From: Aggregatilinea lenta
GTDB lineage: Bacteria; Chloroflexota; Anaerolineae; Aggregatilineales; Aggregatilineaceae
Length of the DNA: 64,000 nucleotides
Reading direction: 5' to 3'
Assembly: GCF_003569045.1 (NCBI RefSeq)
Contig: NZ_BFCB01000001.1
Coordinates: forward strand, 186,001-250,000
Shown here: piece after piece, positions 48,125-61,452 of the stretch
How the letters are laid out: each line of letters begins with the position of its first letter
Numbering within the stretch: the stretch's first letter is position 1
Notes under the pieces: model-generated
What the model saw: the letters and a program-made list of their open reading frames with translations, nothing else
The model's database searches: none
Told to the model about the DNA's origin: nothing
Program-made: the position numbers and the translations under genes

Positions 48125-51100
48125 ATGAACAGGGATACCCAAAGCCAACCCCGGCGGCTTCTGCTGCGCTACGCCCTCGTCACCAGCCTGTGGCTTGTCG
48201 CGTCTCTTTACGTGGCGCACTACTTCAGCCAGAAATCGAGCGTGGGGCTGATCCTCGAAAGCCTCGCCGGGACTATCATGATCACCAGCTTGTTCGTGGT
48301 GTTCCATTACCACTGGCTCAGACGCCAGGAAACCACCCAGGACGCTCTGCAAGAAAGCCAGCGCACGTTCGGCACACTGATGAGCAACCTGCCGGGCATG
48401 GTGTACCGCTGCCAGAACGACGCCGACTGGACGATGGAATTCATCAGCGAAGGCAGCCTGCCCCTCACCGGCTACCCGCCAGAGCAGCTCCTCGCGGGCC
48501 AACCGGCCTCGTTCACCGATCTCATTCACCCGGACGACCGCCACATCATTCGCAGCAGCATCAGCCAGTCGCTCCGTGACGGCGGGCCATTCGAGCTGAT
48601 CTACCGGATCAAGACCGCAGGCGGCGCCGAAAAATGGGTGTGGGAGCAGGGCCAGCCCGTCCCGTTTGGGGACCGGATCGTGCTCGAAGGCTTCATCACC
48701 GACATCACGCCCCAGCGGCAGGCAAACGAGGCGCTGCGCCAGAGCGAAGCCCGCTACCGGCTGCTGGCGGAAAACGCCCAGGACATCATTTACCGTCTCA
48801 GTATCGGGCCTGATGGGCGCTTCGAGTACATCAGCCCGGCAGTCCTGGCCGTCACTGGCTATACGCCCGAAGAAGCCTATGCGTTCGACGAGGCCCCCGA
48901 GCCGCTGATCCACCCGGACGATCACCCGCTCATTGACCACTTCCTCCATAACCCGATCACCCAGCCGGTCCGGCTTCGCCTGCAACACAAGGACGGGCAC
49001 GCCATCTGGGTCGAGGTGCGCAATACGCCCATCTTCGACGACCAGGGGCAGTTCGTCGCCGTGGAAGGCATCGCCCGTGACGTAAGCGCCACGCGCGAGA
49101 TCGAAGCGGCGCTGCGCGAAAGCGAAACACACCTGCGCTCGATCTTCGACGGCGCAGCCATCGGCATCATGCGCATCGATCTGGAAGGGCGGCTGCTGCA
49201 GAGCAACACCGCGCTGCAGTCGATGCTGCAATACAGCGCCGAAGAACTGTACCTGCGGCCCCTGACGGACCTGCTGCCGGACAACATTATGGACCAGTGG
49301 CGGCAGTTGTTCGTCCCGCTGGTCAAGGGCGACCAGGAAGCGTCGTCCATCGAAAAACCCTACCGGCGGAAGGATGGGCACACCATCTGGTGCCGATCTA
49401 CACGCTCGCTGGTGCGCGACGCACAGGGACAACCCGCGTTCATCATCGCCATGCTGGAGGATATCACCGAGCAGCGCCTGGCCGAACAGGCGCTGGCGCG
49501 TCGCACCGAAGAAATCTCCCAGCTCTACGAGCTGAGCAAGCAACTGGGCCAGATTCTTCAGCTCGACGAGCTGTACGATCAGGTCTCCCAGACCGTCCAG
49601 CGGCTGATGGACTGCGACAATCTGGTTCTATCCGCCTATACGCCGGACGATAACCTGATCCGCTGTATTTATATGCAGCATGAGGGCGTCGTGCTGGACC
49701 CATCCGATCTGCCGCCGATTCCCCTGGAGCCGGAGGGCACCGGTACGCAAAGCGTGGCAATCCGCACGGGCGAAGCGCTGATACTGAACGACTACCAGGC
49801 ACATCTGCTTACCGCCAGCACGCGCTACTATGCCAACCAACACGGCGTCATTGGCCCCGACGAGGTACCCGACGACGAAGACGTGCCGCGCTCGGCCCTG
49901 ATCGTTCCGTTGAAGCACGAAGGCCAGGTGACCGGCGTGGTACAGGTCATGAGCTACCGGAAGGACGCCTACAGCGAAGCGGACTTCAACGTGCTGAACG
50001 CCCTGGCGCCCCAGGTGGCCATCGCGCTGCAAAACGCGACGCTCTACCAGCAAGCGCAGGCGGAGATCGCGGAGCGCAAACGCGCGCAAGAAGCCGAATA
50101 CGCACAGCGCACCATCGCCGAGGCCCTGCGCGACAGCGCCGCCGCTCTCAACGAAAGCCTGGACCTCGACGAGGTGCTGGACCGCATTCTGTCGAACGTG
50201 GGCGAAGTCGTGCGGCACGACGCGGCCTACATTCTGCTGATCGAAGAAGACAGCGTGCGCATGGTCCGCAGTTGGGGATTTGCCGAGCACGGCGCAGGCA
50301 ATCAAGTCCATACGCTCGAAACGTCGCTGACCGATCTGCCCGATTTCAGCACCATGATCGAGACGCTTGAGCCTGCCGTCATCTCCGATACGCGGCACAA
50401 CGAGCGGTGGATTGCGCTCCCCGCCACCGAGTGGGTGCGATCCTATGCGGGCGCGCCCCTGGTGCGCAACCAGAGCGTGATCGGCTTCCTGGGCGTGCTG
50501 AGTACGGATCCGGGCTTCTTCTCTGAAGCGCACGGCGACTACCTCCGCGCGTTTGCGGGCCAGGCGGCCATTGCGATGGACAACGCCCGGCTCTACGACG
50601 AGATCAACCTGCACGCCAAAGGCCTCGAACAGCGCGTCCAGGTGCGGACCGAGCAGCTTCAAAACGCCAAAGAACGCCTGGAGGCGATCCTCGACAACGC
50701 CACCGAGATTATCATGCTGCTGCGCCCGGACGGCACCATCGAGCAGGCCAACCGGATGCTGAGCGAGACGTTCGGCATTGAAGAGCACGCATGCCTGGGC
50801 AAGTCGCTGGGCTGCATAGTGTCACCCGCCCAGGCCGAAAAGCTGGCGGACGCGCTGCACGCCGTCACCACCCAGATGGCACCACAGCGTCTGGAGATGG
50901 TCATAGAGAACCAGCACGTGACGTTTGAAGCCGAATTTACCCTGTCGCCGATCGTGAAGTCCGGCGGGCGCATCACGGGCGTCGTCTGTAACGTGCACGA
51001 CATCACGTCGCACAAAGAAATCGAGCGCCAACTGCGCCAGACCATCGACAGCGCGAACCAGCTCAACGACATGAAGTCCCGCTTTGTGTCCACCGTCTCG

Positions 51101-51787
51101 CACGAATTCCGCACGCCGCTGGCTGTCATTCAAACCGCGCTCGATCTGCTGGGGCGCTATGAAGACCGGTTGAGCGCCGAGCAAAAAGTCAAGGAATACT
51201 CGCGCATTCGGACCGCCATCCGCAATATGGTGGCGCTGTTGGACAACGTGCTGGTCTTCAGCCGGGGCGAAGACGGGCGCGTGCCGGTCAAGCCAGAGCT
51301 GATCGACCTGGAGGCGTTCTGCCGGGATCTGATCGAAGAGCTAAAGCATTCCAGCGGCGAGACGCACCACTTCGTGCTGGATGCGAGCGGCGACTGCACC
51401 ACGGTTGCGGTCGATCCGCGCCTGGTGCGGCACATTGTGCTGAACCTGCTCAGCAACGCCGTCAAATATTCCTCCCCCGGCAGCACCATCAGCATCGACC
51501 TGCGCTGCGGGCGCAAAGATGCGTTGATCAGCCTCACAGACCAGGGTATCGGCATCCCGCCGGACGATCAAAAGCACCTGTTCGAGCCGTTCCATCGCGC
51601 CGGAAATGCCATCGAGATCAAGGGCACCGGCCTGGGGTTGGCCATCGTCAAGCAGTCGGTTGACCTGCATGGGGGCATTATTCGCTGCGAAAGCACCGAA
51701 GGCGTCGGGACGACGTTCCACATCCGGCTGCCGTACCTGCTGGACAACCTTCTGAACGAAGCGAATCGCATCGGAAAAGCGTACTAA
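48125..51787 (+). CDS. Multi-PAS/GAF membrane sensor histidine kinase
   Basis: 1220-residue kinase. Two membrane helices lie at about residues 18-60. Then come PAS domains near 83-200, 210-325 and 337-455, GAF domains near 469-640 and 667-830, a fourth PAS near 852-960, a HisKA domain with the phospho-acceptor His993 in STVSHEFRTPLAVIQ, and an ATPase domain with NLLSNAVKYSSPGS near 1107 and GTGLGLAIVKQSVDLHGG near 1167. No receiver domain is fused and no response regulator is adjacent. The TAA stop lies inside the left end of MITE-like copy D, so the C-terminus may have been reset by that insertion. The ribosome site is weak. Confidence 0.93.
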   Translation: MNRDTQSQPRRLLLRYALVTSLWLVASLYVAHYFSQKSSVGLILESLAGTIMITSLFVVFHYHWLRRQETTQDALQESQRTFGTLMSNLPGMVYRCQNDADWTMEFISEGSLPLTGYPPEQLLAGQPASFTDLIHPDDRHIIRSSISQSLRDGGPFELIYRIKTAGGAEKWVWEQGQPVPFGDRIVLEGFITDITPQRQANEALRQSEARYRLLAENAQDIIYRLSIGPDGRFEYISPAVLAVTGYTPEEAYAFDEAPEPLIHPDDHPLIDHFLHNPITQPVRLRLQHKDGHAIWVEVRNTPIFDDQGQFVAVEGIARDVSATREIEAALRESETHLRSIFDGAAIGIMRIDLEGRLLQSNTALQSMLQYSAEELYLRPLTDLLPDNIMDQWRQLFVPLVKGDQEASSIEKPYRRKDGHTIWCRSTRSLVRDAQGQPAFIIAMLEDITEQRLAEQALARRTEEISQLYELSKQLGQILQLDELYDQVSQTVQRLMDCDNLVLSAYTPDDNLIRCIYMQHEGVVLDPSDLPPIPLEPEGTGTQSVAIRTGEALILNDYQAHLLTASTRYYANQHGVIGPDEVPDDEDVPRSALIVPLKHEGQVTGVVQVMSYRKDAYSEADFNVLNALAPQVAIALQNATLYQQAQAEIAERKRAQEAEYAQRTIAEALRDSAAALNESLDLDEVLDRILSNVGEVVRHDAAYILLIEEDSVRMVRSWGFAEHGAGNQVHTLETSLTDLPDFSTMIETLEPAVISDTRHNERWIALPATEWVRSYAGAPLVRNQSVIGFLGVLSTDPGFFSEAHGDYLRAFAGQAAIAMDNARLYDEINLHAKGLEQRVQVRTEQLQNAKERLEAILDNATEIIMLLRPDGTIEQANRMLSETFGIEEHACLGKSLGCIVSPAQAEKLADALHAVTTQMAPQRLEMVIENQHVTFEAEFTLSPIVKSGGRITGVVCNVHDITSHKEIERQLRQTIDSANQLNDMKSRFVSTVSHEFRTPLAVIQTALDLLGRYEDRLSAEQKVKEYSRIRTAIRNMVALLDNVLVFSRGEDGRVPVKPELIDLEAFCRDLIEELKHSSGETHHFVLDASGDCTTVAVDPRLVRHIVLNLLSNAVKYSSPGSTISIDLRCGRKDALISLTDQGIGIPPDDQKHLFEPFHRAGNAIEIKGTGLGLAIVKQSVDLHGGIIRCESTEGVGTTFHIRLPYLLDNLLNEANRIGKAY

Positions 51788-53112: not shown

Positions 53113-54351
53113 ATGACCGAACCAATCCGAATGCTGCACTTCGCCGATGTGCACGTGGGCATGGAAAACTACGGGCGCACCGATCCCGGCACGGGCCTCA
53201 GCTCGCGCGTGGTCGATTTTCTGCGCCGCATGGACGAAATGGTGGACTATGCGGTGAAGCACGACGCGGATCTGGTGATCTTCGCCGGGGACGCGTTCAA
53301 GTCGCGCAATCCCACGCCGACCTTTCAGCGCGAGTTCGCGTGGCGCATCCAGGACCTGGCGAAGCAGTGCCCGGTCGTGATGCTGGTCGGCAACCACGAC
53401 CTGCCGACCATCGACAAGCGCGCGTCGAGCATCGAGATTTACGACACGCTGAGCGTGCCCAACACGATCCTGGGGCGCGACTACCGCACACTCACCGTCG
53501 AGACGAAGCGCGGCCCGGTGCTGGTCGGCACAGCGCCTTATCCGCTGCGCGGCACGCTGCTGCGTGACGCGGAAATCCCGCATAACAGCACCATCGGCGA
53601 GATCGACGGCCTGATGGAACAGCAACTTGACCTCAAGCTCCAGGCGCTGGCCAGCGTCGCGGCGGACGCCGACATGCCGCGCGTGCTGACCGGCCACTTC
53701 ACGGTGACCGGCGCGGTGTGGGGCAGCGAGCGCAGCGTCATGCTGGGCCGCGACGTGCAGGTGCTGCTAAGCACGGTGGCCGATCCCGCCTGGGATTACG
53801 TCGCGCTGGGGCACATCCACAAGCAGCAAAACCTGACGCTGGGCCGCACCGACGCCCCGCCCGTGATCTACAGCGGCAGTCTGGAGCGCATCGACTTCGG
53901 CGAGGAGCGCGATCCGAAGGGCTTCATGTGGGTCGAGCTGGCGCGCGGCGCGACGACATACGAGTTCGTCGAGGTCACGTGCCGCCCGTTCATCACCCTG
54001 CGCGTAGACGTAAAAGGCAAGGGCGATCCGACCGGGGCCGTTCTGAACGAAATTGACCGCCACGATCTGCGCGACGCGATCGTGCGCGTGATCGTCAAGG
54101 CCGATCCTGAGGCGGAGCTGCTGTTGCAGGATCGCCCGATCCAGCAGGCGCTGTACGACGCAGGCGTGAATCACGTCGCCTCGATCCAGCGCGACGTCGA
54201 GCGGCCCGCGCGCATGCGGCTCGGCGCTGCGCCGGAAGGCATGACGCCGGAGCAGCTTTTGGAGCGCTACCTGCTCACGAAGGATCTGCCGCAGGACCGG
54301 ATCGACGTGCTGCTCGACCACGCGCGGGAGATCTTCGACGGCGGTGATTGA
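53113..54351 (+). CDS. sbcD: DNA double-strand-break exonuclease subunit SbcD (Mre11-like)
   Basis: Nuclease subunit that, with SbcC, cuts hairpins and processes broken DNA ends; 412 residues. All phosphoesterase motifs are visible: FADVHVG at residues 10-16, VIFAGDAFKSRNPTP near 56, VMLVGNHDLPT near 91, LTGHFTV near 195 and LGHIHKQQ near 234. The C-terminal 130 residues match the capping and SbcC-contact part. The SbcC gene is 2.2 kb downstream, separated by three unrelated genes, whereas the two are usually adjacent. Confidence 0.94.
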   Translation: MTEPIRMLHFADVHVGMENYGRTDPGTGLSSRVVDFLRRMDEMVDYAVKHDADLVIFAGDAFKSRNPTPTFQREFAWRIQDLAKQCPVVMLVGNHDLPTIDKRASSIEIYDTLSVPNTILGRDYRTLTVETKRGPVLVGTAPYPLRGTLLRDAEIPHNSTIGEIDGLMEQQLDLKLQALASVAADADMPRVLTGHFTVTGAVWGSERSVMLGRDVQVLLSTVADPAWDYVALGHIHKQQNLTLGRTDAPPVIYSGSLERIDFGEERDPKGFMWVELARGATTYEFVEVTCRPFITLRVDVKGKGDPTGAVLNEIDRHDLRDAIVRVIVKADPEAELLLQDRPIQQALYDAGVNHVASIQRDVERPARMRLGAAPEGMTPEQLLERYLLTKDLPQDRIDVLLDHAREIFDGGD

Positions 54352-54440
54352 CCGCACCCGGCTCCGTAAATATGACATCGGATGTCAGGAATAGGGCGTT
54401 ATACTAAAACTTCCGGTTGACTAACCACGGAGGATGATCT

Positions 54441-54941
54441 ATGCCTGCACCGAAGATCCCGGATCCGACCGCCACTCGCCCCTTTATCCTCGACGATTAC
54501 GGCATCCCCAAGACGATGGACGGCGTGCTGCCCTGGTCCTACGCGACGGAGCGGCTTGCACCCGCCCGCAACTACTGGGTCTCGACCACGCTGCCGGACG
54601 GGCGTCCGCACGCGCGGCCCGTGTGGGGCGTGCTGGTCGATGGCGTGCAGTACTTCGGCGGCGGTCCGCAGACGCGCTGGGCGCGCAATCTCGCGGCGCG
54701 GCCCGACGTGGTGCTGCACCTGGAAAGCGGCGACGAAGTGGTGATCGTCGAGGGCACGGTGACCAAGCTGACCGAGGAAAACGCCGATCCCGACCTGCTC
54801 ACGCGCATCGACGACGCGTACGAGGCGAAGTACAACATGCGGCATGGCACGCCGGTCTGGCAGCTCGCGCCGCGCGTGGCGTTTGGCTGGACGAAGTTCC
54901 CCGACGACACGACGAAGTGGGTGTTCGAAAGCAGCGAATAG
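54441..54941 (+). CDS. Pyridoxamine 5'-phosphate oxidase-like flavin/F420-binding protein
   Basis: 166-residue protein of the split-barrel flavin-binding fold. YWVSTTLPDGRPHARPVWGV at about residues 46-65 is the recognisable core, followed by RWARNLAARPDVVLHLESGD and a final FGWTKFPDDTTKWVFES. Such small members bind FMN or F420 and often have unknown redox roles. GGAGG precedes ATG 54441. It lies between sbcD and sbcC but has no functional link to DNA repair that can be read from sequence. Confidence 0.87.
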   Translation: MPAPKIPDPTATRPFILDDYGIPKTMDGVLPWSYATERLAPARNYWVSTTLPDGRPHARPVWGVLVDGVQYFGGGPQTRWARNLAARPDVVLHLESGDEVVIVEGTVTKLTEENADPDLLTRIDDAYEAKYNMRHGTPVWQLAPRVAFGWTKFPDDTTKWVFESSE

Positions 54942-54999
54942 CCGCTAGCGGTTAGCGGTTAGCAAAGGCACAAGCACAAATCCGGCGTTGAATGCCTTC

Positions 55000-55025
55000 G
55001 TAGGGCGGGGCTTGCTCCGCCCTAC
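55000..55025. repeat. R3 intergenic palindrome (GGGCGGGGC core)
   Basis: Reads GTAGGGCGGGGC with inverted GCTCCGCCCTAC, same core as the units at 3376 and 38776. Confidence 0.7.
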
Positions 55026-55035
55026 GCTTCAAAAA

Positions 55036-55069
55036 CGGCCCCTTCTGCGCATCCATGCAAACGGGGCCG
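55036..55069 (-). terminator. Terminator of the YrdB-like gene
   Basis: Minus-strand stem CGGCCCC / GGGGCCG followed by TTTTTG, just after the stop of the YrdB-like gene. Confidence 0.7.
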
Positions 55070-55075
55070 CTGCGT

Positions 55076-55447
55076 TTAAAACGGCTGGTTACGCAGCATG
55101 TGGATCACCCGGTCGTACGAGACGATGTAGTGCAGCACGATCACCGCACCCAGGATCAGCGCGGTCTGATCCTTCCCCGCGTCGGCCAACAGGATCACCG
55201 CCACGCCGAAATAGACCGCTTCCAGCAGCAGCCGCACCGGTCCCGGTACGACGACGGGCGGGTTGGGCTTCGGATCGTTCGGCACGCGGAACGTGCCCCA
55301 CAGCGCTGCTGCAATCACCGGCAGCCCGATCGCGGCGATCCACCGCCACGCGCCGTCGTGTGTGGTCCAGCCCCAATATGCCATCGCCGCGAGTCCGGCC
55401 ATCTCAAGAAAAAACCGCAGCACCAGATTGATCGGGTTATTGCTCAT
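55076..55447 (-). CDS. YrdB-family (DUF2568) small membrane protein
   Basis: 123-residue protein with four hydrophobic segments: LVLRFFLEMAGLAAMAYWGW, IAAIGLPVIAAALWGTF, VRLLLEAVYFGVAVILLADA and LILGAVIVLHYIVSYD. The RFFLELxAL-like start and the FRVPNDPKPNP loop are typical of the YrdB/DUF2568 family, whose function is unknown. ATG 55447 is preceded by GGGGGA; the frame extends to 55480 without a better site. It is transcribed against its neighbours and closed by its own terminator. Confidence 0.82.
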   Translation of the reverse strand: MSNNPINLVLRFFLEMAGLAAMAYWGWTTHDGAWRWIAAIGLPVIAAALWGTFRVPNDPKPNPPVVVPGPVRLLLEAVYFGVAVILLADAGKDQTALILGAVIVLHYIVSYDRVIHMLRNQPF

Positions 55448-55602
55448 CGAGTCCCCCTGTCTACACACGTACGCACACATAGAGTGAAGTAATATGAGAA
55501 GGTCCTCGCAAAAGGTGGTAGATTATCCTGTATAATATTGCAATATGGGATCTGTAGCATGAACATAATGTTATTGATTCTAAAATTAGGAAATAACAAA
55601 AT

Positions 55603-56436
55603 ATGAACTCTACACGTCAAGCGTTAAAACGTGAAGCAGGGATCGCGGCTAGTCATTTAGGTATTGGTGTTACCGCTCTTGGAAAAGCAAACTATGCGCA
55701 AGATGCATACTATAGTCAAGCGTTCTTTGCCTTATCTATTGGCTTTGAGCGTACGGCAAAACTGATTTTGCTCGTGGATTATGCACTAGATCATAACGGA
55801 GATTTCCCCACCAATGAAACTCTCAAAGAATATGGTCACAAACTCAAAGAATTACTTATTCAGAGCGATAAAATAGCTAAAAAGCGACATTTTGAAGAAC
55901 AGATAGGGGAATTACCAAATACAGATATCCATAAATCTATAATCGAAATTCTGTCGTCATTTGCTAGTAATGTAACCCGTTACTACAATTTGGACTTTGT
56001 TACAGGCGTTACAGCCAATAAAAACACACAAGATCCTATCAAGGCTTGGTATGAGCACGTTATTCTCCCAATCCTGGATATTCACTATAAGCCACAGCAG
56101 CAAGCAAAGCATGAACAAAATGCGCGTATAATCGCGGATTTTATGGAACCAATTACATTGGTACGATTTCATTCCGAACAAGGGCAACCACTAAATAGTG
56201 TTTTTGATTCAAGCTTGCAAACTGCAAAGATCGGGTTTGCAATGCCTTATAGCCGAATGTATGTAATGCAAATAATTCGCTTTCTAGCAAATCTCCTATT
56301 CGAACTTACACATCTGACCATAAGAGATCGTCTGGAAGATATCCCTTACTTTCCTGAATTCTTCGCCATATTTAATAATGAAGATAGATATTTTAAGCGT
56401 CGAAAAACTTGGCTGATTGATTCTCCATATCACTAA
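55603..56436 (+). CDS. AT-rich gene of unknown function between sbcD and sbcC (possible HEPN-like protein)
   Basis: 277-residue helical, soluble protein that I do not recognise firmly. AQDAYYSQAFFALSIGFERT and LKEYGHKLKELLIQSDK resemble the helical pattern of HEPN-type proteins, and SSFASNVTRYYNLDF has the RYYNLD string seen in some of them, but a clear Rx4-6H RNase motif is not visible. Base composition and codon use are far more AT-rich than in adjacent genes, as are its flanks (55481-55602), a sign of recent transfer. It could be a defence or phage-related gene. ATG 55603 lacks a strong ribosome site. Confidence 0.6.
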   Translation: MNSTRQALKREAGIAASHLGIGVTALGKANYAQDAYYSQAFFALSIGFERTAKLILLVDYALDHNGDFPTNETLKEYGHKLKELLIQSDKIAKKRHFEEQIGELPNTDIHKSIIEILSSFASNVTRYYNLDFVTGVTANKNTQDPIKAWYEHVILPILDIHYKPQQQAKHEQNARIIADFMEPITLVRFHSEQGQPLNSVFDSSLQTAKIGFAMPYSRMYVMQIIRFLANLLFELTHLTIRDRLEDIPYFPEFFAIFNNEDRYFKRRKTWLIDSPYH

Positions 56437-56600
56437 GTCCATCAAAATTCAAACGTATCATTTTTAAAATGCTAGAGTAAGATTCCCCGCATCTTCCCAC
56501 CAACGCCCGCGAATGCGCTATACTTGCCCATGCGAACGGAAGTGCTAGTCAGCCCGGTCCGCTGCCCCACCAGGCGGCGGACGTGAAAGAGCGATCCCGA

Positions 56601-59165
56601 ATGCTGCCCACCCGACTCGAAATGCGCAACTTCCTGGCCTACCGCCAGCCCGATCCCCTTGTATTCGATGGCATTCACCTCGCCTGCCTCAGCGGACCCA
56701 ACGGCGCGGGCAAATCGTCCCTGCTGGACGCGATCACCTGGGCGCTGTGGGGCAAAGCCCGCACGCGCAGCGATGACGACCTGATCCACCAGGGCCAGTC
56801 CGAGATGATGGTCCAGCTCGACTTCATCCAGGGCGAGAGCCTGTACCGTGTCGTGCGCAAGCGTCAGAAGGGGAAGACCAGCAAGCAGGGCCGCAGCACG
56901 CTCGACCTGTTCGTGTGGGATGCCGAGGCCAACCAGCACCAGCTCATCAGCGCGCCGTCGATCCGCGAGACGGACGCGCGCATCGTCGATCTGCTGCGCC
57001 TGTCCTACGACACGTTCGTAGACTCGGCCTTCTTGCAGCAGGGCAAGGCGGATTCGTTCACCATCAAGCCGCCCGGCGAGCGCAAAGCGATCCTCTCGAA
57101 GATCCTGGGCCTCGAGCAGTGGGCCGACTACGAAGAGCGCGCCAAAAACGCCCTGCGCCAGATCGAACACGAGGTCGGCGTGATCAACCTGCGGTTGGAC
57201 GAGATCGCCGGGCAGGAAGCGGAAGAACCCGCTTTGCTGCGCGCGCTCGACGTAGCGCAGGCGGATGTGGCCGAGGCTGCCGCCTTGCGCGAGCAGGCCG
57301 AAGCCCATTACGCCGAGGTCGCCGGGGCGCAGGAGCAGATGAACGCCGCGCAGGCCCGGCTGGCTCAGGCGCAGCACCACATCAAGGAACGCAAGCGCGA
57401 CCTGGCGGAGATCGAGGCCGAGCAGCAGCGCACGCTGGACCAGCTTGGGGCGCTGCGCGCGCTAATCGAGGACCGCGACTCCATCGAGCAGGGCTACGCG
57501 CAGCTTCAGGCCGCGCGCCACGCGGATCAGGCCCTGGGCGAAAAGCTCCAGGCTATGAGCGCGATCAAGGACCGGCTGACCGACGTCAACGCACGCATCC
57601 AGGCGGCCCGCGCCGAACTCGAAGCACAGGCCAAAGTGCACTCGGACCGCATCGGCAGTGCGGGACGGATCGCGGGGGAGATCGAGACGTATCAGGCCGA
57701 CCTCAGCGACGTGCAGGGCGAGGTCACGCAGCTCGAATCGGACGAATCCCGGCGCGACGACCTGCGCGAGGCGATCAGCAGTTTCAACGAAGAGATGGCC
57801 GAGCGTAAGGCGGTCAACCGCACGCTGTACGACGAGATGCAGGCGATCAAGGCGCGCATCGCGGACGTGCAGGGTGCGCAGGCGGTCTGCCCCACCTGCG
57901 GCCAGCCGCTCAGCGAGGAGCAGAAAGCCGCGCTGCTGGTCGAATTGCAGGCGGATGGCACGCAGCGCGGCGACACGCACCGCGCCAATCAAGCCCGCAT
58001 GACCGAAATCACCGAGACGATCAAGGCCCACCGCGCCGAGATCGAGGCCATCGACGTGGAACTGCGGCGGCTCCAGCCCCTGCGCGACCGCGTGGCGACG
58101 CTCGGCCAGAACGTCGAAGCGGCGCGCAACGCGAACGACACGATCCAGTCCGAAAGCGCGGCATTGGAAGCGGTCGAAGCGATGCTGGAAGCGGGTGACT
58201 ACGCACGCGAACTTCAGTCACAGCGCGACGCGATCCAGGCGGAAATCGACGGGCTGGGTTACGACTCCGACGCGCACAGCGCCGCGCGTGAAACGCTGAG
58301 CACCTATCACGATTACGAGCGCCGCCAGCGCGACCTCGAAGCCGCGCTGAAGCAGGTCCCCGATCTGCAAACGGCGCTGGAGAACACCGCCGCCCGGCGC
58401 GTGCGGTGGGAAGCGGCGCTGGCCGAAGAAGAAAAAGAAGCGGCGGATGCCCAAACCGAAATGGACGCGCTGGCGGAACTGGTCGAGGAGGCGCGGCGGC
58501 GCGAGGACGAAGTCCGGCGGCTGCGCACGGCGGAAAAACGCGCCGAAGAAGGACGCATCCGCGCGCAGCAGGCGCTGGCGGCGCTCGACGCGGCGCGCAG
58601 GCGCAAAGAGGAACTCGTGCAGCGCCAGCACGACCTGATGGAGCGCAAGAGCATCTACGAGGATCTGCGCTCGGCGTTTGGCAAAAACGGCGTCCCGGCC
58701 ATGATCATCGAGGCGGCCATCCCCGAACTGGAAGAAGCCGCGAACCACCTGCTGATGCGCATGTCCGGCGGGCGCATGAACGTGCGGCTGGATACGCAGC
58801 GCGAGAAAAAGACCGGCGGCACAGCGGAAACGCTCGACATTCTGATCGGTGACGAACTCGGCACGCGCAGTTACGAACTCTATTCCGGCGGGGAGGCGTT
58901 CCGCGTCAACTTCGCGCTGCGCGTGGCGCTCAGCCAGATGCTGGCCCGCCGCGCCGGGGCGCAGCTTCGCACGCTGTTCCTGGACGAGGGCTTCGGTACG
59001 CAGGACGAAAACGGGCGGCAGCGGCTGGTGGAGGCGATCACCGCCGTGCAGGACCACTTCGACCTGCTGCTGGTCATCACGCACATCGACGATCTGCGCG
59101 ACGCCTTCCCGGTGCAGATCACCGTGACCAAAACGCCCGACGGCAGCCGGGTCGCGGTGGGGTAG
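56601..59165 (+). CDS. sbcC: DNA repair ATPase SbcC (Rad50-like)
   Basis: SMC-like ATPase partner of SbcD, 854 residues. Walker A GPNGAGKSSLLDAITWALWG lies at residues 33-52. Two long coiled-coil arms rich in Ala, Glu and Arg flank the zinc hook CPTCGQPLSEEQ near residue 430. The C-terminal head has the ABC signature LYSGGEAFRVNFALRVALSQ near 762 and Walker B RTLFLDEGFGTQD near 794. I chose ATG 56601; GTG 56583 would add six residues. The arms are shorter than in E. coli SbcC, giving a smaller protein. It is followed after seven bases by a methyltransferase gene. Confidence 0.95.
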   Translation: MLPTRLEMRNFLAYRQPDPLVFDGIHLACLSGPNGAGKSSLLDAITWALWGKARTRSDDDLIHQGQSEMMVQLDFIQGESLYRVVRKRQKGKTSKQGRSTLDLFVWDAEANQHQLISAPSIRETDARIVDLLRLSYDTFVDSAFLQQGKADSFTIKPPGERKAILSKILGLEQWADYEERAKNALRQIEHEVGVINLRLDEIAGQEAEEPALLRALDVAQADVAEAAALREQAEAHYAEVAGAQEQMNAAQARLAQAQHHIKERKRDLAEIEAEQQRTLDQLGALRALIEDRDSIEQGYAQLQAARHADQALGEKLQAMSAIKDRLTDVNARIQAARAELEAQAKVHSDRIGSAGRIAGEIETYQADLSDVQGEVTQLESDESRRDDLREAISSFNEEMAERKAVNRTLYDEMQAIKARIADVQGAQAVCPTCGQPLSEEQKAALLVELQADGTQRGDTHRANQARMTEITETIKAHRAEIEAIDVELRRLQPLRDRVATLGQNVEAARNANDTIQSESAALEAVEAMLEAGDYARELQSQRDAIQAEIDGLGYDSDAHSAARETLSTYHDYERRQRDLEAALKQVPDLQTALENTAARRVRWEAALAEEEKEAADAQTEMDALAELVEEARRREDEVRRLRTAEKRAEEGRIRAQQALAALDAARRRKEELVQRQHDLMERKSIYEDLRSAFGKNGVPAMIIEAAIPELEEAANHLLMRMSGGRMNVRLDTQREKKTGGTAETLDILIGDELGTRSYELYSGGEAFRVNFALRVALSQMLARRAGAQLRTLFLDEGFGTQDENGRQRLVEAITAVQDHFDLLLVITHIDDLRDAFPVQITVTKTPDGSRVAVG

Positions 59166-59937: not shown

Positions 59938-61452
59938 GTGAAAACCTGTCTATGGGGACTGATGATCTCGGCGTTCGCTCTGATGCCTCTTCGCACCACC
60001 CCTCAAGCCTACGGTAATAGCCCTTCACTGATTTACTACTATGCGCAAGATGATGCCGCGTTCATCATCGAAACTGCCACAGGCGATCAGCGCGAGGTCC
60101 TGGCAAATTTTACATTGAGTGAAGGAACGCAAATTGCCGGGCCAGGATGGTCCTCATCGGGCGAATGGTTTGCATGGTATGAACGCAGCCAGGGCGCTGC
60201 ACCCTCGAACGGCTACGTAGTACGTCGTGGTCTGGAAGACTACATTCCTATTTTTGATTCTGAGGGCATCATCGATATGCATTGGTCTCCCGAAGGCGAA
60301 CTATTACTCGCCTCGCGGACCGCATATGATGAAAAGGCCAACCCGCAGACCGAGATGGTCGTCATTGACTTCGCAATGGATCAGCGCGTCCTCTTGCATG
60401 ACGTCTACGAAGAAGGATTGTCATCGATTGGGTGGCTGCCACAAGGTCAAGGCGTCTTTTTTGCTGACACGGTTGGGCACGTCGTTATCACGCAGAATCT
60501 TGACGCTCCAACGCCGAAGGTGACGTCGATCGAGGCAAACAGCGATTACTGCGCAAAGATTTCCTTCTCGTCGGTGAACTATTTATTGCATCAGAGCGCA
60601 GATGGCACGTCACTTGTTGTTTCAAATTTATCGGATTCGAAGGTCGAGACTGTACTACAACTCGATTTTGATGACAGAATCCAGTATGTTTATTGGAGTC
60701 ACAGCGGCCTCCAGGCTGTACTCTATACAACAGCCTTCTGTTCTACGAATTGGACTTACGATGTGTGGTTTTTAGATATGCAAGCTGGAACCTTCGTGCA
60801 ACTTGCAGAAGATGTGCCAGCATTGTGGGGCCTGCGAACGACAGATAGTCGTTTCTTCTACGAGCCGATATGGTCTCCAAACGATGCTTACTTTGCGTAC
60901 CTTGACGCTAACCGCGCATTGCAAATTGTCGAGTCAAACAGCCTTCGATCGAGTTCGGTTGATATTGCCCAAGACGGCGATATAGAGCGTTTTTGGTGGC
61001 TATCAGAGCAAGAGATTCTGTTCGAATGGAATGTGGCACAATGGTATGAGGACGGTATTTATATCGTTTCTACCACGTCGTGGCTAAATCCTGCGGCTCA
61101 TCAAATCGCGCGCGTGGATATTCGTTATGAAAGTACCACTCAGCTTCCAACATTATCATCGCAATCTACTAAACTGGCTTTCTCGTTCCCCGAGTGCAAT
61201 CATGGATGCATACTCGACTTGATATCTGGAAGGATTATCGAGACCTATCAAATTGAAGAATTACAAGACGTCCCCTATGGCGCGAGCTATTTTGTGTGGC
61301 ATTCAAGCGATGAATGGTTATTCGTGCTTAACGACTCTGACGGAATTTCATACCTTAGCATCGTGGACATTACAGGCGAGGTCCAGAGACACTTAGGCTT
61401 ATGCACGCTGTCGCCTTCATGCTTTGGTTGGCTGCCGCAAAGTAACAGGTAG
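59938..61452 (+). CDS. Secreted propeller-like protein of unknown function
   Basis: 504-residue exported protein. The signal peptide KTCLWGLMISAFALMPLRTT ends near PQAYG. The rest is repeats of short strands with W-S-x-x-G elements (GPGWSSSGEWFAWYE, MHWSPEGELLLASR, YWSHSGLQAVLYTT, PIWSPNDAYFAYLD), the look of a TolB/WD-like beta-propeller, about six to seven blades. GTG 59938 follows GGAGAGAA. Composition is clearly less GC-rich than the flanking genes, so it may be acquired. It probably acts at the cell surface, perhaps in binding; no enzyme motif is seen. Confidence 0.7.
   Translation: MKTCLWGLMISAFALMPLRTTPQAYGNSPSLIYYYAQDDAAFIIETATGDQREVLANFTLSEGTQIAGPGWSSSGEWFAWYERSQGAAPSNGYVVRRGLEDYIPIFDSEGIIDMHWSPEGELLLASRTAYDEKANPQTEMVVIDFAMDQRVLLHDVYEEGLSSIGWLPQGQGVFFADTVGHVVITQNLDAPTPKVTSIEANSDYCAKISFSSVNYLLHQSADGTSLVVSNLSDSKVETVLQLDFDDRIQYVYWSHSGLQAVLYTTAFCSTNWTYDVWFLDMQAGTFVQLAEDVPALWGLRTTDSRFFYEPIWSPNDAYFAYLDANRALQIVESNSLRSSSVDIAQDGDIERFWWLSEQEILFEWNVAQWYEDGIYIVSTTSWLNPAAHQIARVDIRYESTTQLPTLSSQSTKLAFSFPECNHGCILDLISGRIIETYQIEELQDVPYGASYFVWHSSDEWLFVLNDSDGISYLSIVDITGEVQRHLGLCTLSPSCFGWLPQSNR

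What the first reader, a model, noticed from the sequence alone, without database searches (positions are those of the whole stretch)
54352..56600. sbcD and sbcC separated by three unrelated genes including an AT-rich newcomer
sbcCD genes are normally adjacent. Here a flavin protein, a YrdB-like gene on the other strand and an AT-rich gene of foreign look lie between. The newcomer has HEPN-like strings (SIGFERTAK, RYYNLD) and may be a defence gene that settled beside a nuclease that attacks phage DNA ends.
Basis: partly seen in the sequence, partly recalled or inferred. Interest (0 to 1): 0.55.

Follow-up and report, generated by a model that had tools for sequence, protein, structure and literature searches.

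The report
Mobile HEPN-like gene inside sbcCD locus
A foreign, AT-rich gene lying between two DNA-repair genes belongs to an unnamed family that resembles HEPN RNA-cutting toxins and is carried by prophages and plasmids, so it is probably an untested anti-phage or mobile-element conflict gene.

Summary
The ORF looks foreign: GC3 0.32 against 0.82-0.89 in nine of ten genes around it; no match in the 17 listed same-family genomes; 52% identical to a Geobacter protein. Homologues occur in 140 of 72,556 plasmid records, 3 phage records, 13 viral contigs and 44 of 5,426 E. coli genomes, some in defence islands. None of four family libraries names it. The canonical Rx4-6H motif is missing; an invariant histidine in the helix 2-3 insert fits the alternative site described for AbiV/HEPN-T. 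A tie to SbcCD is not supported: no fetched homologue neighbours sbcCD, and the sbcD-sbcC junction is loose in relatives. Best reading: a single-gene HEPN effector of phage/plasmid conflict, probably an RNase. Activity is untested.

The parts
53113..54351 (+). sbcD (412 aa), context
   Evidence: TIGR00619 over cut-off, PF00149
54441..54941 (+). PPOX/PNPOx-fold oxidoreductase gene (166 aa), context, native composition
   Evidence: PF01243 over cut-off; GC3 0.88
55076..55480 (-). DUF2568 gene (134 aa), context, native composition
   Evidence: PF10823 E 4.7e-25; GC3 0.815
55481..55602 (+). AT-rich leader of the newcomer (GC 0.31)
   Evidence: the consensus scan found no promoter-like site in it
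55603..56436 (+). the newcomer, HEPN-like gene, 277 aa
   Evidence: GC 0.384, GC3 0.317; homologues
55609..56004 (+). N-terminal HEPN-like domain (residues 3-134)
   Evidence: hhalign with 30 PF05168 domains, score 27.5; domain model pLDDT 79 and structural rows
   Evidence: E49, R50, K53 in 16 of 16 members; aligned with the EK..K of PF05168
55837..55839 (+). H79, invariant histidine in the insert between helices 2 and 3
   Evidence: 16 of 16 members; helices
   Evidence: R126, Y127 in 16 of 16, D131 in 7 of 16; aligned with TRYPN of PF05168; residues 125-141 pLDDT under 50
56035..56418 (+). C-terminal helical part (residues 145-272), no known relative, less conserved than the N-terminal part
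   Evidence: model pLDDT mostly over 85; lower identity than the N-terminal part in 13 of 13 comparisons
56583..59165 (+). sbcC (860 aa), context
   Evidence: 64-73% identical in same-family relatives, 56% in one

Best explanation
The AT-rich gene is a horizontally acquired, stand-alone member of an undescribed HEPN-like family that circulates on prophages and plasmids and serves in conflict between mobile elements, most likely as an abortive-infection effector. Shown: foreign composition, patchy distribution, carriage by phages and plasmids, no conserved partner gene, HEPN-like N-terminal domain with invariant E49/K53, H79 and R126. Inferred: the HEPN domain dimerises and cuts RNA without metal, using H79 of the helix 2-3 insert with R126 and E49 in place of the canonical Rx4-6H pair; the faster-changing C-terminal helical part holds it inactive until it meets a phage product; the freed RNase then stops translation and phage growth. 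The place between sbcD and sbcC is a chance landing site.
For: Profile: 16-member N-terminal alignment against 30 PF05168 HEPN domains from the same phylum, score 27.5, E 4e-4, 73 columns; best of 100 column shuffles 18.59, reversed 16.2; best of 35 decoy windows 16.73; without the two divergent same-phylum members 26.3. Register: FERTAK on AEKA.K, GHKLKELL on GHsL..LL, FASNVTRYYN on YYIPTRYPN. Structure: 4nqf_A, a HEPN domain protein, ranks first (Z 7.2, rmsd 3.1, 102 residues); 14 of 50 rows are HEPN or HepT structures (8 by title, the rest by papers seen or recall). Conservation: E49, R50, K53, H79, R126, Y127 in 16 of 16; H79 lies in the helix 2-3 insert, R126 just after helix 3, as described for AbiV and the AF0298-type HEPN-T (PMC3710099 section 6). 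Mobility: 140 of 72,556 plasmid records, 3 of 50,697 phage records, 13 viral contigs, 44 of 5,426 E. coli genomes; gene poorer in GC than its flanks in 17 of 17 loci, by 0.01 to 0.24. Transfer: 52% identity with a Geobacter MAG whose genome gives no match to the window's SbcC at E 1e-3. Defence setting: dGTPase, NACHT and type II CBASS on a Klebsiella plasmid; AbiJ-like neighbour on a Rhizobium plasmid; type I and IIG restriction, MNT and HEPN genes by a same-phylum relative.
Against: Plain hmmscan finds no HEPN or other curated family for the protein and none over a cut-off for the six other core members. The hhalign probability is only 34%; a first try against 5 HEPN domains gave 17.5, within the shuffle range seen later; the two divergent members alone gave 15.5. 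Foldseek gives no match at E 0.001 for either model; Z 7.2 is under the tool's caution line of about 13 for helical bundles and an unrelated receptor follows at 6.2; the second look with the whole model lists no HEPN-titled chain in 50 rows. The canonical Rx4-6H is absent. R126 is in a stretch of pLDDT under 50 in the full model. No similarity to a single AbiV sequence was found. Defence neighbours were hand-picked, 4 of 6 loci scanned with PADLOC had one, and no control rate was measured; the window itself has no clear defence neighbour. No phenotype is known.
Confidence: 0.55

Rival explanations
1. A gene that serves the mobile element rather than immunity: a toxin-like stabiliser of plasmids, or a prophage cargo gene that controls lysogeny or shuts out related phages by another route.
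For: Most copies found are on plasmids, often near toxin-antitoxin genes, and at prophage ends or near phage structural and lysis genes.
Against: No antitoxin-like partner is shared by divergent members, so a classical two-gene module is unlikely. Copies also lie on chromosomes without an evident element, as in the window and the Geobacter contig.
Confidence: 0.2
2. A HEPN-like domain without catalysis that binds RNA or protein, for instance a regulator or an inhibitor of host defences.
For: Rx4-6H is missing; PMC3710099 (sections read) proposes non-catalytic RNA binding for HEPN domains without it.
Against: Charged and polar residues E49, R50, K53, H79, R126, Y127 are invariant in 16 members, and H79 fits the alternative active site described there.
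Confidence: 0.15
3. An unrelated all-helical bundle; the HEPN likeness is convergence of helix patterns.
For: Weak E-values and probability, no Foldseek hit, helical folds match easily.
Against: Score well above 100 shuffles and 35 decoys that include SbcC coiled coils, motif register, and many HEPN structures in one list.
Confidence: 0.15
4. A functional partner or regulator of SbcCD, kept there because the nuclease and the HEPN protein act together on phage DNA ends.
For: Position only.
Against: No SbcC- or SbcD-like neighbour in the 17 other loci; the junction is open to other genes in relatives; the protein is missing from the 17 listed same-family genomes, of which 12 were shown to have sbcC.
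Confidence: 0.03

Closest known systems
HEPN-T family PF05168 (minimal HEPN toxins, often with MNT), AF0298/2hsb type
   Same: Ex3K in helix 2, histidine before helix 3, arginine-tyrosine after helix 3; alignable over 73 columns; 2hsb at Z 5.5
   Different: Not found by the Pfam model; no adjacent MNT gene in the window; extra C-terminal helical part of about 140 residues; of 30 PF05168 domains 7 have RYPxxH, this family has no H there
AbiV (PF18728), abortive infection, Lactococcus
   Different: No similarity by hmmscan or by hhalign to the one AbiV-type sequence found in 201 genomes
Tha (tail-activated HEPN anti-phage protein of Staphylococcus prophages)
   Same: Single prophage gene of about 300 aa, HEPN plus an unexplained second part (PMC11087260, section 9 read); a model for how it could work
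   Different: In Tha the HEPN domain is C-terminal with canonical R-x4-H; here it is N-terminal without it; no sequence comparison was made
AbiJ
   Same: HEPN defence protein; an AbiJ-like gene adjoins one homologue
   Different: AbiJ has its HEPN domain at the C-terminus with Rx4-6H (PMC3710099 table passage); P0001 does not match the AbiJ models

Membership tests
HEPN superfamily (alternative-histidine class, HEPN-T AF0298 / AbiV) | Profile similarity to HEPN domains above chance | tested here: met
   hhalign 27.5 against maxima of 18.59 (100 shuffles) and 16.73 (35 decoys); E 4e-4, probability 34%. A 5-sequence HEPN set gave only 17.5
HEPN superfamily (alternative-histidine class, HEPN-T AF0298 / AbiV) | Ex3[KR] motif in helix 2 | tested here: met
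   E49-x3-K53 in 16 of 16 members, in helix 35-63
[quoted passage not shown]
   H79 and R126 in 16 of 16; H79 between helices 71-77 and 81-94, R126 three residues after helix 108-123; R126 region of low confidence. That they meet in space was not measured
HEPN superfamily (alternative-histidine class, HEPN-T AF0298 / AbiV) | HEPN four-helix fold | tested here: inconclusive
   HEPN chain 4nqf_A first at Z 7.2 and 14 of 50 rows HEPN/HepT, but under the caution line for helical bundles, and no Foldseek match at E 0.001
HEPN with canonical RNase site | Rx4-6H motif | tested here: not met
   After R126 the x4 position is D, N, A or S in 16 members; not filed in this class
Pfam PF05168 and PF18728 as curated | hmmscan match over the curated cut-off | tested here: not met
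   0 Pfam families for P0001 at E 1; none of these two for the relatives scanned
Known anti-phage systems of PADLOC-DB 2.0.0 | Match to a defence model | tested here: not met
   0 families for P0001 at E 10 and for 7 of 7 members of A2 at E 1
Abortive-infection effector (by function) | Phage resistance with arrest of the infected cell | not testable with these tools
   Needs phage challenge
HEPN RNase (by activity) | Metal-independent RNA cleavage | not testable with these tools
   Needs purified protein
MNT-HEPN toxin-antitoxin pair | Adjacent MNT nucleotidyltransferase gene | tested here: not met
   Window neighbours are DUF2568 and sbcC; no partner gene shared by divergent members. One same-phylum relative lies by an MNT-HEPN pair of its own

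The most novel reading that the evidence does not exclude
The family is a new single-gene abortive-infection system: an N-terminal HEPN nuclease with a non-canonical active site (H79, R126, E49) fused to a fast-evolving C-terminal sensor, passed between distant bacteria by prophages and plasmids, and present unnoticed in E. coli prophages and enterobacterial plasmids.
Probability: 0.35. Interest if true: 0.6.

Novelty: new member of a known kind. Interest (0 to 1): 0.42.

Why it matters
It gives a name and testable residues to a family annotated 'hypothetical protein' in E. coli prophages and enterobacterial plasmids. If it is a phage-defence RNase with the alternative histidine site, it would test directly the 2013 proposal (PMC3710099) that HEPN domains without Rx4-6H can still cut RNA. 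It also shows that sbcD and sbcC, often treated as one unit, are separable in this bacterial family.

Tried and rejected
Housekeeping gene: no curated match, no match in the 17 listed same-family genomes. Link to SbcCD: rejected as above. Insertion marks: no direct repeats flank the gene (the 15-nt pair has one copy in the leader and one inside the gene), no promoter-like site in the leader and no terminator-like site, so the way it arrived is unknown. Partner gene: all-against-all of neighbours within up to 5 kb in 18 loci gave sharing only between close pairs (L015-L018, L031-L032), plus generic portal, recombinase and reductase hits.

HEPN tests that failed: 5-domain HEPN set (score 17.5, E 0.04), HepT set (14.1, one column; but PF05168 against HepT gave 12.5 too, so this test cannot link even known HEPN families), one AbiV sequence (12.5, 22 columns, out of register). 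Foldseek with the whole model and the N-terminal model: nothing at E 0.001 in PDB or, for the whole model, in viral structures. Whole-model second look: best Z 5.2, no HEPN-titled row in 50. PDB by sequence: best E 0.067.

Viral contigs with the protein alone found nothing; only the alignment reached relatives. Papers: accession search gave 0 papers (four accessions); searches on HEPN with plasmids, islands and prophage hotspots listed no paper recognisably on this family, but only titles, abstracts and a few passages were seen, so a published description cannot be excluded. PMC9519451 reports remote HEPN similarity in 6 of its 21 systems (passage); I did not compare with their sequences except through PADLOC.

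Contamination or misassembly: not tested with reads; the gene lies inside a 907-kb contig between genes whose order sbcD...sbcC fits relatives. The window's phylum is not told by any search; I would guess Chloroflexota (recalled).

Full report
Observation. The five genes lie as described: sbcD 53113-54351, a PPOX-type gene 54441-54941, a DUF2568 gene 55076-55480 on the other strand, the AT-rich ORF 55603-56436 and sbcC 56583-59165. The ORF has GC 0.384 and GC3 0.317; of ten other genes measured in the window nine have GC3 0.815-0.891 and one 0.519. The protein is single-copy in its 6.2 Mb genome.

Distribution. In the species-genome collection the single protein reached one relative, a Geobacter MAG (52% identity over residues 1-275; the scan finds close relatives only). 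Of 400 genomes of the same phylum two match, the own one and G315 at 34% over residues 11-149; of 101 genomes of the same order the profile finds two, the own one and G461. The 17 same-family genomes listed there have none. In contrast tblastn finds 140 of 72,556 plasmid records at E up to 0.1, 136 with at least 80% of the query, mostly Klebsiella 81, Escherichia 39 and Salmonella 12, many of them near-identical copies; 3 of 50,697 phage records, all from E. coli; 13 viral contigs (two searches returned only contigs already seen). The phage-type gene is in 44 of 5,426 complete E. coli genomes, always on the chromosome; the plasmid type was not counted there.

Transfer. The window protein groups with the Geobacter one (support 87/86, not a starred fork), while the two same-phylum proteins form a distant pair with a different, longer C-terminus. 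The window's SbcC finds no match at E 0.001 in that Geobacter genome, though also only partial matches in the same-phylum G315 and a full one (40%) in G461. The gene is poorer in GC than its flanks in 17 of 17 loci, by 0.010 to 0.240. Together this is a gene that moves, not one inherited with the chromosome.

Surroundings of homologues. On a Klebsiella plasmid the gene adjoins a dGTPase gene, with a NACHT ATPase gene 3 kb and a type II CBASS set (phospholipase, cyclase, E1-E2, JAB) 5.5-10 kb away. On a Rhizobium plasmid it adjoins an AbiJ-like protein with an Abi_C domain. The G315 relative lies among a type I restriction subunit, a type IIG-like enzyme, an AAA_15 ATPase and an MNT-HEPN pair (HEPN). 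An E. coli plasmid copy, its frame broken, is 4 kb from a NERD-helicase. PADLOC was run on chosen neighbours of six homologue loci; four had a match (L016, L017, L018, L079) and two did not (L010 and L015, one neighbour each). This is a choice, not a rate, and no control was measured. Prophage copies lie beside a DNA invertase and tail fibre genes at a prophage end, on contigs with a phage portal gene (L021, L030) or a phage lysozyme gene (L031). The window's own neighbours are not a defence island; PADLOC gives only generic matches for the kinase, SbcC and the methyltransferase. No partner gene recurs between divergent members, and none resembles the window's SbcC or SbcD.

What the protein is. 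Pfam, NCBIfam, PADLOC and PHROGs give nothing credible for it. AlphaFold2 with 11 family sequences gives a helical model of mean pLDDT 88; the N-terminal 142 residues alone give 79. [quoted passage not shown] A second look at Foldseek's candidates with the N-terminal model puts 4nqf_A, 'HEPN domain protein', first (Z 7.2, rmsd 3.1, 102 residues), then a receptor (6.2), and among 50 rows 14 HEPN or HepT structures: eight by title, two titled MntA-HpeT, 5yep and 3jrt as HEPN by papers seen (PMC4621449 listing; PMC3710099 passage), 1ufb and 7bxo by recall. Foldseek itself gives no E under 0.001, and Z is below the caution line for helical bundles, so structure alone is inconclusive.

The profile test is the firmest. 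Sixteen N-terminal sequences against 30 PF05168 domains from the same phylum give score 27.5, E 4.2e-4, probability 34%, 73 columns. Column shuffles reach at most 18.59 in 100, the reversed alignment 16.2, and 35 windows of SbcC, SbcD and phosphatase alignments at most 16.73. The C-terminal half scores 12.5. Leaving out the two divergent members gives 26.3, those two alone only 15.5, and an earlier five-domain HEPN set only 17.5.

Active site. PMC3710099 (section 6 read; other passages by search; [quoted passage not shown] Here E49, R50, K53, H79, R126 and Y127 are invariant in 16 of 16 members, and the place x4 after R126 is D in 7, N in 5, A in 3, S in 1. That is the alternative pattern. R126 lies in a low-confidence stretch, and I could not measure whether these residues meet.

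Mechanism. By analogy with Tha, a single prophage HEPN protein set off by phage tail proteins (PMC11087260, abstract and section 9 read), I infer a latent RNase whose C-terminal helical part senses infection. The C-terminal part is less conserved than the N-terminal part in 13 of 13 comparisons with the window protein, as expected of a sensor, though also of a mere linker. RNase activity, dimer, trigger and cell arrest are all inferred.

sbcCD. In 12 same-family relatives with sbcC, sbcD lies directly upstream in four (L060, L065, L066, L068), is separated by other genes in three (L061, L062, L063; 0.9-2.9 kb), was not found in the upstream DNA held in four (L064, L067, L069, L070), and one was not fetched. 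The junction is therefore an open site, and the HEPN-like gene one of several lodgers.

Verdict. A new family of a known kind: a mobile HEPN-like gene, likely a defence or conflict effector. Ordinary in kind, but unnamed in the libraries searched and readily tested.

Noticed in passing
59938-61452: Second composition outlier of the window (GC 0.49, GC3 0.52), a 504-aa protein with only weak beta-propeller matches under the cut-offs.
   Followed up: no
L061, L062, L063 between sbcD and sbcC: Three relatives carry a similar-looking gene of about 290-301 aa (alike by eye, not aligned) at this junction, one also a sensor kinase gene.
   Followed up: partly
L069 (G405 contig 115): The phosphatase gene that elsewhere precedes sbcD lies directly before sbcC, with no sbcD between; loss or an assembly effect.
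   Followed up: no
L078:8785-9966 and L079:4033-5076: Divergent same-phylum subfamily (347-393 aa) with the same N-terminal motif set and a different C-terminus; L011/L079 protein has a DUF2511 match just over cut-off there.
   Followed up: partly
L010:7396-10731: The Geobacter homologue lies between a small PIN-like ORF and a UvrB-like ORF (names recalled from sequence); another DNA-repair neighbour, probably chance.
   Followed up: no
L017:6718-20725: Klebsiella plasmid defence island with type II CBASS, NACHT ATPase, dGTPase and a PDC-S45 match around the homologue.
   Followed up: partly
L018:6001-6817: E. coli plasmid copy of the gene with a broken reading frame.
   Followed up: partly
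48125-51787: Very large PAS/GAF-type sensor kinase gene (1220 aa, domains recalled) upstream of the phosphatase-sbcD pair.
   Followed up: no
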